Assembly (NCBI GenBank): GCA_017626095.1
Contig: JAGAJL010000012.1
Location: 296,932-360,931 of the forward strand
Reading direction: 5' to 3'
DNA: 64,000 nt
DNA from: Lachnospiraceae bacterium
Lineage (GTDB): Bacteria > Bacillota > Clostridia > Lachnospirales > Lachnospiraceae
The notes beneath the pieces are model-generated. The model had not been told where the DNA came from and did not search any database. It worked only from the letters and a program-made list of their open reading frames with translations. Made by a program: the position numbers and the translations under genes. Of the stretch, positions 10,870 to 50,453 are shown one piece after another. Each line of letters opens with the position of its first letter. The stretch's first letter is position 1.

Positions 10870-11095
10870 GTTAGCCGGGACTTGTATTCTCTCGAGTTTT
10901 GATTACGATATATAAGTTTATCTAAATATTTCGTGATGGTTTTTGGGCATCGGACGCACCGGTGCACCCGGACATCCATGTCCGACGTGCACCTTTCGCG
11001 ACATCCATGTCGCGAATTGCTGAAATGAAACGAAATATTAAGATAAACTAATATATCTGCATAAAAAACTCTCAAGAATACAAGTCCCAGCCAAC
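10870..11095 (-). repeat. Long palindromic element, copy 1 (subtype alpha, minus strand)
   Basis: 226 bp. The ends GTTAGCCGGGACTTGTATTC and GAATACAAGTCCCAGCCAAC pair, and pairing continues inward through AAGTTTATCTAAATATTTCG and CGAAATATTAAGATAAACTA. Read on the minus strand, the core holds TTCGCGACATGGATGTCGCG (hairpin, loop ATGGAT) and a nested stem GGTGCAC / GTGCACC enclosing GGACATGGATGTCC. Core orientation defines the strand. No transposase or convincing protein is encoded. Confidence 0.85.
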
Positions 11096-11308
11096 TGTAT
11101 GTTCCAATCTCAATGGAGTGTTACGCGTTTTGAGCTCTTGCAATCCTAAAAACAGTTGAAATACGTGCTGATTGAACTGCTTTCGCCTGTTTTGCAGATT
11201 GCATGAAAAGTAGCATCTTTTAACTCTGAGATCATCTATATGTAATATTCTGCTTTATGGAAATGGAATTGATGGCAGCAGTAATAATGTATACTGCCGA
11301 TTCACTAA
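11096..11308. other. Spacer between palindromic elements 1 and 2
   Basis: 213 bp between two outward-pointing elements. No gene, terminator or clear promoter is recognised, and it shares no obvious similarity with the equivalent spacer at 49896-50225. If the elements are transcribed, both would start from here. Confidence 0.5.
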
Positions 11309-11536
11309 GTTGCGGGAAGATATTGTATTTTACCACTATTTGGCGGAAGTTCATTAGTTTATCTTAATATTCCGACAAAGTATCAGCACTTCGTGACATG
11401 GATGTCACGAAAGGCGCATCTAAGGCAGGATGCCGCATATGCGCCGTGTGCGTCCGGTTATTAAGACATTGCTCGGAATATTTAGATAAACTTATGAACG
11501 AACGCATAGTGGAAAAATACAATATCTTCCCGCAAC
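11309..11536 (+). repeat. Long palindromic element, copy 2 (subtype beta, plus strand)
   Basis: 228 bp. End arms GTTGCGGGAAGATATTGTAT and ATACAATATCTTCCCGCAAC pair. Inner arms are TTAGTTTATCTTAATATTCC and GGAATATTTAGATAAACTTA. The core has TTCGTGACATGGATGTCACG (same hairpin as copy 1 with C-G swapped to T-A) and GGCGCAT / ATGCGCC around GGCAGGATGCC. It ends 82 nt before addB. It also contains a 52-codon open frame (ATG 11398 to TGA 11556) that copy 4 does not keep. Confidence 0.85.
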
Positions 11537-11578
11537 GACAGCAATGGCAGCGATGACAGCAATGGCAGCGATGACAGC
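11537..11578 (+). repeat. 18-bp tandem repeat before addB
   Basis: GACAGCAATGGCAGCGAT occurs twice exactly (11537-11554 and 11555-11572) and is followed by a partial third unit GACAGC. It sits between element copy 2 and the addB ribosome site. Confidence 0.85.
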
Positions 11579-11618
11579 GGTGGACAAAAACAGGAAAGAC
11601 AGTAAAAGGAAAGTTGAT

Positions 11619-20562: not shown

Positions 20563-20710
20563 AAAAAAACCTCCTTGATAAATTGCTTAGGAGGGGAGTG
20601 ATGGCGTTTTAAGCTATCGGCAGAAAACAACCACAAAAATGTATGATATCTGTTTGTAATTCTTTCGTATCACTATTTGATATGGTTATTTATCAGTATT
20701 TTACTTAAAA

Positions 20711-20795
20711 CTGCTTCCTTACGCCGGTATTATCCGGTTCAAGTAGTGAGGGTTAGTGATCATATCACAATCTCAGCCGGTGGGCTCCCCTAGCA
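20711..20795 (-). promoter_or_regulatory. TPP riboswitch (THI element) controlling thiT
   Basis: On the minus strand: GGGGAGCCCACCGGCTGAGA, then ACCCTCACTACTTGAACCGG, then ATAATACCGGCGTAAGGAAG. These are the conserved CUGAGA and ACCC...GAACC...GGAUAAURCC...GCGUARGGAA segments that bind thiamine pyrophosphate. It sits between the thiT promoter and gene, where TPP binding is expected to lower expression. Confidence 0.95.
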
Positions 20796-20816
20796 AATAT
20801 TTATTTGTACGTTCAA

Positions 20817-48185: not shown

Positions 48186-49646
48186 ATGACAGATGAGAAA
48201 AGCATGGGAAAAGAAATGCAGGAATTAAATGTCAGGGGCTTCCTCGTTGACATTTATGACAAAACACAGTCTTATGTGCGGGTGACGGAGGATGATCAAG
48301 AGGCATGGCTGTATCTGGTTGAAAAAGAAGATGAATCATTTTATTCCAAGGAAGAACTACTGGACTTTTTGGAAAATAACGGGGTTCGATATGGCATCAA
48401 TGAGGATAATCTGATTGCAATGGCGCGTAAGAAGGTATATGAACGGGAAATCAAAGTCGCTGTTGCAACAGAGGCAATTGCAGGTCAGGATGGATATTAT
48501 GAATACTATGTGGACGTGACCGGTGATGTGAAGAAACCCAAAATTCGCGAGGATGGCTCTGTTGACTATCAGAGCATGAATATGGTCAACAGTGTACAGG
48601 CAGGTACACCACTGGCATTATATCATCCTGCAAAAGAAGGAATTCCGGGTATTGGTGTAACCGGAACCTCGATACCGGTGAATTCGGTAAAAAATCTGTT
48701 ACCACTGCAGGGACGCAACATCATTCATTCTGAGGAGGATCCCAATTTATATATTGCGCAAAAAGAAGGAAAAGTGGAATATAAAGACGGCAAGCTGGAT
48801 ATCAATTCGGTTTATGAATTGCGTGGAGACGTCGATCAGCTGATTGGAAAGGTAGAATTTTACGGAGACGTGGTGATCTCCGGAAATGTGGAATCAGGAG
48901 TTGTTATACGAGCCGGAAAAAGTCTGACTATTGAGGGTACGGTTGAAGCGGCAACGATTGTGGCCGGCGGTGATATTATCCTTAAGAGAGGAATACAGGG
49001 AAATCAAAAGGCGAGTATTGTATGTCGCGGAGATCTTTATGCTGACTTTATTGAACACACACAGGTCAAAACAAACGGCAATGTGGAAGCCAATATTATT
49101 TTGAGTTCTCAGATCGAGGCGGAAGGTAAGGTGACGCTTACCGGCAAAAAAGGTGCTATTATCGGTGGATATGTCCATGGAACAAAGGGAATTGACTGTA
49201 AAAATCTGGGAAACGACGCAGAGGTCAAAACAGAAGTGCATGCCGGATGTCAGCCTGAGATATATCAGGAAAATCTGGAATTGAATAAACGACTTGAAAA
49301 ATTGAAAAATTCCCAAAAACGGCTTGTGAATGATTTAAAAGAAATAGAAATGCATGTTAAAAAGACAGGTGCAATTACTCCCACATTTGAAAAGAGAGTT
49401 GCTGAGATTAAGGAAGAAATGAAAGGGCTTACGGAAGATATGCAGTCCTGCAACGGTAAACTGGCTTCCATTATGGTATATATGCAGAAAGCAAAGGATG
49501 CATTGATACGCATTGACGGTAATCTGCATAAAGGAAGTATTATCTGTATCGGACAGGGAAGACTGCCGATTGAAAACAGCACAGTCTATATGGAATATCG
49601 GAATATATCCGGAATGATTGCCGGAAAGGTTATTGTAAAGAATTAG
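48186..49646 (+). CDS. FapA-like DUF342 polymer-forming protein
   Basis: 486 residues. N-terminal mixed domain to about residue 170, then a parallel beta-helix-type repeat core (VEFYGDVVISGNVESGVVIR, SLTIEGTVEAATIVAGGDII, GNVEANIILSSQIEAEGKVT). A coiled coil (NLELNKRLEKLKNSQKRLVN, about 355-430) and a short tail follow. This is the DUF342/FapA family. The cytosolic location and a role in assembly or surface organisation are family inference. AAGGAGGGA upstream. Directly followed by palindromic element copy 3. Confidence 0.85.
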   Translation: MTDEKSMGKEMQELNVRGFLVDIYDKTQSYVRVTEDDQEAWLYLVEKEDESFYSKEELLDFLENNGVRYGINEDNLIAMARKKVYEREIKVAVATEAIAGQDGYYEYYVDVTGDVKKPKIREDGSVDYQSMNMVNSVQAGTPLALYHPAKEGIPGIGVTGTSIPVNSVKNLLPLQGRNIIHSEEDPNLYIAQKEGKVEYKDGKLDINSVYELRGDVDQLIGKVEFYGDVVISGNVESGVVIRAGKSLTIEGTVEAATIVAGGDIILKRGIQGNQKASIVCRGDLYADFIEHTQVKTNGNVEANIILSSQIEAEGKVTLTGKKGAIIGGYVHGTKGIDCKNLGNDAEVKTEVHAGCQPEIYQENLELNKRLEKLKNSQKRLVNDLKEIEMHVKKTGAITPTFEKRVAEIKEEMKGLTEDMQSCNGKLASIMVYMQKAKDALIRIDGNLHKGSIICIGQGRLPIENSTVYMEYRNISGMIAGKVIVKN

Positions 49647-49669: not shown

Positions 49670-49895
49670 GTTTTATGAGTATATTATTTACTTGGTGTTA
49701 GGTTACGATGTATAAGATATTCTAATTATTCCGTTGAGATGTGTTGATGGCAGACGCACCGGTGCACCCGGACATCCATGTCCGTCGTGCACCTTTCGCA
49801 GCATCCATGCTGCGAATTGCTGAAATAGAACGGAATAATAAGAACATCTAATACATCTTCACAATAACACCGCATAAACAATATACTCATAAAAC
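49670..49895 (-). repeat. Long palindromic element, copy 3 (subtype alpha, minus strand)
   Basis: 226 bp, the same length as copy 1. Ends GTTTTATGAGTATATTATTT and its partner ATATACTCATAAAAC pair. On the minus strand the core has TTCGCAGCATGGATGCTGCG (a two-pair swap relative to copy 1, still paired) and GGTGCAC / GTGCACC around GGACATGGATGTCC. It begins 24 nt after the FapA-like gene stop. Confidence 0.85.
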
Positions 49896-50225
49896 TGCGT
49901 AACAAATTCCTCTTATATTATTCTTTGTACATCATACTTTCTGATAGCTTCAAATCGGATGGCTATAATTCTGGATAAAATGCCTTGTTCCCCTGTTTGC
50001 ATGTTTTTTAATATATTGGGATATACGGCCTATGTGCTAAGTGGAGAAGTATAATGATGAATGATATGGAATTCAAAATAAATTGCATGAAATCGAAAAT
50101 AAAAAGAAATTCGAGATTTCATGAACATGTTTCAATAATGATAAAATTGATTTTGAAGGTATAGAATAATATAATATCTTCAAATGCGTGAACGACTTGA
50201 ATAAATGAGTAAATTGATATGCTCA
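49896..50225. other. Spacer between palindromic elements 3 and 4
   Basis: 330 bp, AT-rich. No gene or terminator recognised. It contains an imperfect pair AATTGCATGAAATCG / CGAGATTTCATG near 50082-50121. If the flanking elements are transcripts, their promoters should be here. Confidence 0.5.
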
Positions 50226-50453
50226 GTTGAGGAAGGATTGTTTGTTTTTGTGAGATTTGAGGGAGTTGATTAGTTTATCTTAATATTCCGACTAGATAAT
50301 CAGCACTTCGTGACATGGAAGTCACGAAAGGCGCATTTTAGGCAGGATGCCGTATATGCGCCGTGTGCGTCAGGGAATTAGATATTTTTTCGGAATATTT
50401 AGATAAACTTATCAACGGACGTATCCCACAAAAATAAACAATCCTTCCTCAAC
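50226..50453 (+). repeat. Long palindromic element, copy 4 (subtype beta, plus strand)
   Basis: 228 bp, the same length as copy 2. Ends GTTGAGGAAGGATTGTTTGT and AATAAACAATCCTTCCTCAA pair. Core: TTCGTGACATGGAAGTCACG (loop change only) and GGCGCAT / ATGCGCC around GGCAGGATGCC. It ends 39 nt before the folC start. Confidence 0.85.

What the first reader, a model, noticed from the sequence alone, without database searches (positions are those of the whole stretch)
10870..11536. Novel family of 226/228-bp long-hairpin elements with compensatory stem changes
Copies at 10870-11095, 11309-11536, 49670-49895 and 50226-50453 share one design: an outer stem of ~60 bp (GTTG...CAAC-type ends), a conserved inner stem (TTAGTTTATCTTAATATTCC), then two core hairpins. 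The first hairpin is CGCGACATGGATGTCGCG, CGTGACATGGATGTCACG, CGCAGCATGGATGCTGCG or CGTGACATGGAAGTCACG: stems co-vary and the loop ATGGA(T/A) is kept. The second changes from GGTGCAC/GTGCACC to GGCGCAT/ATGCGCC. Outer arms differ between copies but pair within each copy. That is evidence of selected structure, most simply an RNA. I know no named RNA or MITE that matches.
Basis: partly seen in the sequence, partly recalled or inferred. Interest (0 to 1): 0.9.

Follow-up and report, generated by a model that had tools for sequence, protein, structure and literature searches.

The report
TwoAYGGAY RNA hairpins in inverted pairs
The four hairpins are copies of a catalogued but unexplained bacterial RNA family (TwoAYGGAY); here they form a genome-wide set of head-to-head pairs whose tips look like docking sites for the regulator protein CsrA, which makes an old guess about their function easy to test.

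Summary
All four copies match Rfam RF01731 (TwoAYGGAY) at 105-115 bits. The genome holds 29 copies. Ten intergenic sites carry two copies head to head, always one of subtype A and one of subtype B, around spacers without common homology. Covariation is strong. GGA stays in a hairpin loop in 137 of 141 copies (antisense 9) on 79 different stems, which fits CsrA-binding hairpins, proposed in 2014 and untested as far as I saw. CsrA is in 34/35 and 49/51 carrier genomes, but flagellar FlhA is in 35/35 and 50/51.

Against a simple RNA story: copies lie antisense to neighbouring genes as often as sense, no promoter signal was found, and stem pairs show only a weak G-U over A-C excess (1.6:1; tRNAs 25:0). 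The arms may also be homogenised as a DNA palindrome. Sites differ between sister species.

Most likely: dispersed palindromic elements whose RNA presents CsrA sites. Transcription, CsrA binding and transposition are not shown.

The parts
10870..11095 (-). TwoAYGGAY copy 1, subtype A, with outer arms; Rfam core 10900-11064
   Evidence: RF01731 108 bits; fold -115.6 kcal/mol; subtype
10997..11014 (-). copy 1 first hairpin CGCGACATGGATGTCGCG, candidate CsrA site
   Evidence: sequence; forms in the predicted fold
10970..10983 (-). copy 1 second hairpin GGACATGGATGTCC, candidate CsrA site
   Evidence: sequence; forms in the predicted fold
11096..11308 (.). spacer between copies 1 and 2; not homologous to the spacers of the other pairs
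11309..11536 (+). TwoAYGGAY copy 2, subtype B, with outer arms; Rfam core 11342-11506
   Evidence: RF01731 110.5 bits; fold -117.7 kcal/mol; subtype
11392..11409 (+). copy 2 first hairpin CGTGACATGGATGTCACG, candidate CsrA site
   Evidence: sequence; does not form in the predicted best fold of this copy
11424..11434 (+). copy 2 second hairpin GGCAGGATGCC (CAGGATG), candidate CsrA site
   Evidence: sequence; forms in the predicted fold
49670..49895 (-). TwoAYGGAY copy 3, subtype A, with outer arms; Rfam core 49700-49864
   Evidence: RF01731 104.9 bits; orthologue in G086
49797..49814 (-). copy 3 first hairpin CGCAGCATGGATGCTGCG
   Evidence: sequence; forms in the predicted fold
49770..49783 (-). 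copy 3 second hairpin GGACATGGATGTCC
   Evidence: sequence; forms in the predicted fold
49896..50225 (.). spacer between copies 3 and 4
   Evidence: diverged between sister species
50226..50453 (+). TwoAYGGAY copy 4, subtype B, with outer arms; Rfam core 50258-50423
   Evidence: RF01731 114.5 bits
50309..50326 (+). copy 4 first hairpin CGTGACATGGAAGTCACG
   Evidence: sequence; forms in the predicted fold
50341..50351 (+). copy 4 second hairpin GGCAGGATGCC
   Evidence: sequence; forms in the predicted fold

Best explanation
The four copies are TwoAYGGAY (RF01731) elements: chromosomal, dispersed, long palindromic elements whose RNA, read from the Rfam strand, folds into one long stem that holds up two hairpins with GGA in the loop. 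The most likely working is that these loops bind the host CsrA, so that the many copies together act as a distributed CsrA sink or as portable CsrA sites in whatever transcript runs through them. The outer stem only has to pair; its sequence is free and changes fast, helped by copying between the two arms at the DNA level (template switching at a hairpin). In this genus most elements sit as head-to-head doublets of two subtypes; how doublets form is unknown. Shown: family identity, copy number, doublets, covariation, GGA conservation on one strand, co-occurrence with CsrA (confounded with flagella), differences between species at the same sites. Inferred: transcription, CsrA binding, titration, transposition, arm-to-arm copying.
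For: Identity: four RF01731 hits, 29 in the genome. Covariation: 18 of 21 pairs with changes on both sides (3/500 shuffles reach 18), covariation score 0.613 against 0.192 (0/500); 17 Watson-Crick to Watson-Crick double changes in 1149 stem pairs of 18 orthologous elements, where about 3 double changes of any kind are expected from independent change. GGA in a hairpin loop in 137 of 141 copies sense, 9 antisense, 26 shuffled; in some copy of 28 of 29 genomes; 79 distinct 6-nt stems under 259 loops (same counts when the arms are included). C-G pair closing the first loop invariant in 36/36. CsrA in 34/35 carriers against 74/165 non-carriers in the family (p 1.8e-9) and 49/51 against 229/337 in the phylum (p 4e-6). 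Among flagellated phylum genomes 48/269 with CsrA and 2/49 without carry the element (p 0.017; recounted). The genome's CsrA has Arg at position 44 counted from MLALS (that this residue matters is recalled) and matches solved CsrA chains. Weak G-U excess on the Rfam strand, 241 against 152 A-C.
Against: No promoter enrichment upstream (mean best score 7.80 sense, 7.88 antisense, 7.73 shuffled, n=104, run with six strands assigned wrongly, see Tried and rejected). Orientation to flanking genes is neutral (sense-sense 28, antisense-antisense 32, mixed 35 of 95; the 44 G042 copies not included), so many copies may not be transcribed in the right direction. FlhA is in 35/35 and 50/51 carriers, so the CsrA link could be a motility link; species are related, so the p values are too small. 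Two phylum carriers (G381, G434) and one family carrier (G168) have no CsrA hit. Of 141 copies 19 have one GGA loop and 4 none; window copy 2 forms only one in its predicted best fold. No expression data were available.
Confidence: 0.5

Rival explanations
1. A DNA element only: a non-autonomous palindromic repeat of the MITE or REP-doublet kind, moved by a transposase acting in trans that reads the hairpin or its tips; any RNA is a by-product.
For: Dispersed intergenic copies: 29, 31, 47, 20, 7 and 15 in the six genomes scored with the fuller filters; other carriers often list only 1-4. Orientation-neutral to genes; no promoter signal; A-C cells not far below G-U in the arms (95 and 134; 39 and 40 in G000 plus G086). 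Sister-species differences at the same site: B in G000 but A in G086 (C18:267643), an A only in G086 (C31), a B of G000 (C7) with a 149-aa ORF in its place in G086. Terminal inverted ends and apex-deleted remnants in G042; 47 and 15 copies in two species of one genus; divergent doublets resemble REP doublets (recalled).
Against: GGA loops are kept on one strand through 79 stem sequences, with a weak but significant G-U excess on that strand; no target-site duplication or clean empty site was shown; no autonomous partner was found, but none was searched for systematically; CsrA co-occurrence is unexplained.
Confidence: 0.3
2. A cis-acting leader that controls the downstream gene, as Rfam's type 'Cis-reg' says; the window B copies lie just upstream of an addB gene and a folC-like gene.
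For: Both window B copies lie sense, upstream of genes with AddB (PF21445) and Mur-ligase (PF08245, PF02875) domains; Rfam type Cis-reg.
Against: Orientation neutral over 95 copies; the A partner in the window lies antisense behind the upstream gene, and flanking-gene arrangements differ from site to site. Weinberg 2010 marked it 'n' (probably not) for cis-regulatory (table row).
Confidence: 0.07
3. A two-way transcript end or mRNA-stabilising hairpin between genes, with the GGA loops incidental.
For: Very stable hairpins between genes in co-directional, divergent and convergent arrangements.
Against: By eye no T-run follows the stems of the four window copies; does not explain the conserved GGA loops or two subtypes.
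Confidence: 0.1

Closest known systems
Rfam RF01731 TwoAYGGAY (Weinberg 2010, PMC2864571; human gut, gamma-Proteobacteria, Clostridiales)
   Same: Core structure, two AYGGAY-type loops, Clostridia; full-length hits over the gathering score. That an external stem is poorly conserved is already noted in a figure legend of PMC4333381.
   Different: Not mentioned in the passages I read: arms that differ between copies yet pair within each, A/B subtypes, head-to-head doublets, antisense placement, differences between sister species at one site.
CsrB/RsmZ-type CsrA-sequestering sRNAs (recalled; proposed for TwoAYGGAY in PMC4333381, passages read)
   Same: GGA in hairpin loops; the B second hairpin holds CAGGATG (match to the CsrB repeat is recalled).
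   Different: Many dispersed copies with one or two sites instead of one locus with many; no promoter found; binding untested.
REP/BIME doublets, REPINs and ERIC/RUP-type MITEs (recalled; PMC3733652 seen as a search listing with the start of its abstract)
   Same: Palindromic, intergenic, multi-copy; inverted doublets of two subtypes with a spacer.
   Different: Unit is about 226 bp here and longer in G042, not 20-40; unrelated spacers between doublets; arms differ between copies; no partner transposase known.

Membership tests
Rfam RF01731 TwoAYGGAY | covariance-model match over the gathering score (43 bits), full length | tested here: met
   104.9-114.5 bits, model 1-168, four of four copies
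Rfam RF01731 TwoAYGGAY | two AYGGAY hairpin loops | tested here: met
   A copies: both loops ATGGAT; B copies: ATGGA(T/A) and CAGGAT, so the second loop of B is a variant; the best predicted fold of copy 2 forms only the second
CsrA-sequestering RNA | GGA held in hairpin loops under selection | tested here: met
   137/141 sense, 9/141 antisense, 26/141 shuffled
CsrA-sequestering RNA | host has CsrA | tested here: met
   one PF02599 hit, E 8.3e-26
CsrA-sequestering RNA | expressed as an RNA from its own promoter | tested here: inconclusive
   no sequence sign of a promoter; no RNA data
CsrA-sequestering RNA | binds CsrA | not testable with these tools
   needs a binding assay
MITE | terminal inverted repeats shared between copies | tested here: inconclusive
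   seen in G042 (GTCAAAACAKGC at 49 sites, reversed control 1); in G000 the arms pair within a copy but differ between copies
MITE | target-site duplication or empty site | tested here: inconclusive
   sites differ between sister species but insertion and deletion cannot be told apart
MITE | autonomous partner transposon with the same ends | not tested
   10 end sites of G042 were viewed; no systematic search was made
REPIN (REP doublet) | inverted doublet | tested here: met
   25 of 27 neighbour pairs under 800 bp in the hit listings are divergent, 1 (-,-), 1 (+,+), 0 convergent; listings are capped for rich genomes, and G000 and G086 share about six of these sites
REPIN (REP doublet) | palindromes of 20-40 bp | tested here: not met
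   units are about 226 bp
REPIN (REP doublet) | GTAG-type foot and RAYT transposase gene (recalled) | not tested
   not searched for
cis-regulatory leader | constant sense orientation to the controlled gene | tested here: not met
   SS 28, SA 19, AS 16, AA 32 of 95 copies (2 skipped, 44 of G042 not included)

The most novel reading that the evidence does not exclude
TwoAYGGAY is a mobile palindromic element that carries RNA docking sites for a global regulator: it multiplies in flagellated Clostridia, in some genera as inverted doublets, and copy by copy builds a dispersed CsrA sponge, with the long stem kept near perfect by DNA-level copying between its arms while selection on the RNA keeps above all the GGA loops.
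Probability: 0.25. Interest if true: 0.8.

Novelty: new variant of a known kind. Interest (0 to 1): 0.5.

Why it matters
TwoAYGGAY was found in 2010 and I saw no function established since. The 2014 paper says that CsrA-sequestering sRNAs had been identified only in Gammaproteobacteria (passage). If the loops bind CsrA, regulation by CsrA in gut Lachnospiraceae would run through up to tens of dispersed repeats per genome, a case of repetitive DNA acting as a regulator sink. The weak G-U excess also warns that covariation in long palindromes need not mean RNA selection alone.

Tried and rejected
Composite transposon with common cargo: spacers of the ten doublets share no homology beyond one 15-bp word. 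Dedicated promoter: no enrichment. Pure RNA selection on the outer arms: not supported in this genus (G-U 40, A-C 39), weakly supported overall (134, 95) and in G042 (48, 25). Integron attC analogy: considered from memory only and dropped, because the terminal bases run the other way and no cassettes were noticed; not tested. Carriage by phages or plasmids: no match (two exact patterns against viral contigs and one 165-base query against plasmids and against phages, so distant relatives could be missed). Ancient fixed doublets: partly right (20 orthologous elements in the sister species) but sites also differ. G042 against G586 flanks: the one query used (L124) hit only the repeats, so no empty site was obtained. 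The apex-deletion series in G042 rests on 4 of 10 end sites viewed by eye; others of the ten are one-ended or not elements.

Errors corrected on the way: the strand of 6 of 46 copies from other genomes (four of G008, one each of G060 and G115) was guessed wrongly; one search gave the strands and one search repeated the stem, loop and orientation counts. The promoter scan was not repeated. Subtype calls used a crude rule and were replaced. The minus-strand copies were aligned unturned; one search replaced it. One search failed on a print error. The tRNA control failed and worked. Genome tallies were first made by eye and recounted from typed handle lists, which gave the same numbers. Rows left out: four copies of 141 with no usable long stem in the stem count, two degenerate orthologues of 20, four of 44 G042 copies, two copies without two flanking ORFs.

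Full report
Identity. A scan of the window against Rfam 15 gives four RF01731 (TwoAYGGAY) hits of 104.9-114.5 bits over the full model, two on each strand. The family is known but unexplained. Weinberg 2010 lists it as probably RNA and probably not cis-regulatory (table row). [quoted passage not shown] CaCoFold extends its helix (passage), Rfam 15 reports 2 more covarying pairs (table), and a 2024-25 preprint notes two hairpins of different stability (passages). A search for 'TwoAYGGAY' found 7 papers, 5 listed, and for 'RF01731' 4 (PMC7682815 seen only in the listing), in an open-licence library; the passages I read mention no mobility, doublets or subtypes. Wider searches were seen as listings only.

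Genome-wide picture. The genome has 29 copies. Aligned on the RNA strand they fall into subtype A (12), subtype B (14) and a third type C (3). Ten sites hold a head-to-head doublet, 5' ends facing, and all ten pair one A with one B; one of them has an extra tandem A. In the sister species G086 nine doublets are all head-to-head, six A+B and three A+A (30 of its 31 hits were used). In the hit listings of all genomes, 25 of 27 neighbour pairs under 800 bp are divergent, one (-,-), one (+,+), none convergent; the listings are capped for rich genomes, and G000 and G086 share about six sites. Spacers of 54-470 bp (the 380-bp one includes the extra A) are unrelated. In G042 (47 hits) and G004 (20 hits) most copies stand alone.

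Outer arms. Beyond the Rfam core 28 of 29 G000 copies have about 25-30 further mostly paired bases, different in sequence from copy to copy; C34:3777 has no matching arm. In another genus (G042) the arms are alike in many copies and, by eye, the element runs to about 85-95 nt beyond the core, ending in paired terminal repeats such as GTCAAAACATGC/GCATGTTTTGAC that also change together. There the terminal motif occurs 49 times against 1 for the reversed control, and 4 of 10 end sites viewed are remnants of 23-171 bp with the apex gone.

Orthologues. G086 carries 20 reciprocal-best orthologous elements in matching gene neighbourhoods. In 18 of them (two degenerate ones left out) 1149 stem pairs were compared: 1056 unchanged, 69 changed on one side, 24 on both, of which 17 are Watson-Crick to Watson-Crick; about 3 double changes are expected from independent change. 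One-sided changes between Watson-Crick and G-U number 24, between Watson-Crick and A-C 11. Sites also differ: at C18:267643 G000 has B where G086 has A; an A at G086 C31 and one at C15 are absent from G000; at C7 of G000 the B has a 149-aa ORF in its place in G086; a B in G086 C7 has lost its apex. In a third relative (L211, RGIG406, dairy cattle colon, FolC-like protein 94% identical) the same site has a different A, a PIN-domain ORF (PF18475) and only the last arm of B.

RNA or DNA. Over 141 copies of 29 genomes (4 dropped from the stem count) the outer arms have 3839 Watson-Crick, 134 G-U, 95 A-C and 293 other cells; the inner stem 3715, 107, 57 and 718; 17 tRNAs of the fetched loci have 347 Watson-Crick, 25 G-U and 0 A-C (the tRNA pairs are those ARAGORN drew, which favours standard pairs). 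A strand-blind process would give G-U equal to A-C, so there is RNA-strand selection (p 0.012 and 0.0001), but it is weak; shared ancestry makes these p values too small. In G000 and G086 arms the numbers are 40 and 39, in G042 arms 48 and 25. My inference is that arm-to-arm copying at the DNA level adds to RNA selection; weak selection on single pairs could also give a low ratio. GGA is in a hairpin loop in 137 of 141 copies sense (118 with two or more), 9 antisense and 26 shuffled, with 79 distinct stems under 259 loops; folding with the arms gives the same counts. The C-G pair closing the first loop is invariant in 36 of 36. In G042 the eight-pair first hairpin shows 95 double-changed Watson-Crick cells of 320 and no one-sided G-U or A-C cell.

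CsrA. In 200 genomes of the family (199 genera) 35 carry TwoAYGGAY; 34 of them and 74 of 165 non-carriers have CsrA over the cut-off. In 388 genomes of the phylum 51 carry it at E 0.001 or better (34 over the gathering score); 49 of them and 229 of 337 non-carriers have CsrA at E 0.001 or better. FlhA is in 35 of 35 and 50 of 51 carriers, and in 268 of 337 phylum non-carriers. Among 318 flagellated phylum genomes, 48 of 269 with CsrA and 2 of 49 without carry the element (p 0.017; recount). The link is to the flagella-CsrA module, with a slight lean to CsrA itself; related species are not independent.

Verdict. The elements are real, structured and already catalogued. What I did not find described is the A/B head-to-head doublet organisation, the differences between sister species, the weak G-U excess and the co-occurrence with CsrA. 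Function remains inferred.

Noticed in passing
window 20699-20801 (-): TPP riboswitch, 72 bits.
   Followed up: no
G042:C54:10614-10763 (L132): A divergent extra CsrA gene lies about 1.2 kb from a TwoAYGGAY copy. Several carrier genomes (G042, G060, G037, G008, G157) have extra divergent CsrA copies, but so do non-carriers (such as G057, G171, G074, G016, G196, G001).
   Followed up: no
L211:3460-3990: PIN-domain ORF (PF18475) sits where the B copy stands in the sister species, leaving only the last B arm before the FolC-like gene.
   Followed up: partly
window 11537-11585 and the same place behind other copies: Short imperfect tandem repeats (ACAGCAATGGCAGCGATG-like) or C-rich tracts follow the 3' arm of many copies, by eye, and differ between species.
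   Followed up: no
L030:1127-1802 (G000:C49): csrA lies directly behind a 152-aa ORF that looks like FliW (recalled, not scanned).
   Followed up: no
G000:C14:18362-18754: A tandem duplication of an A copy in G000; G086 has one A at this site.
   Followed up: partly
window 48186-49646: The gene before pair 2 is a FapA-family protein (PF03961, PF20250).
   Followed up: no
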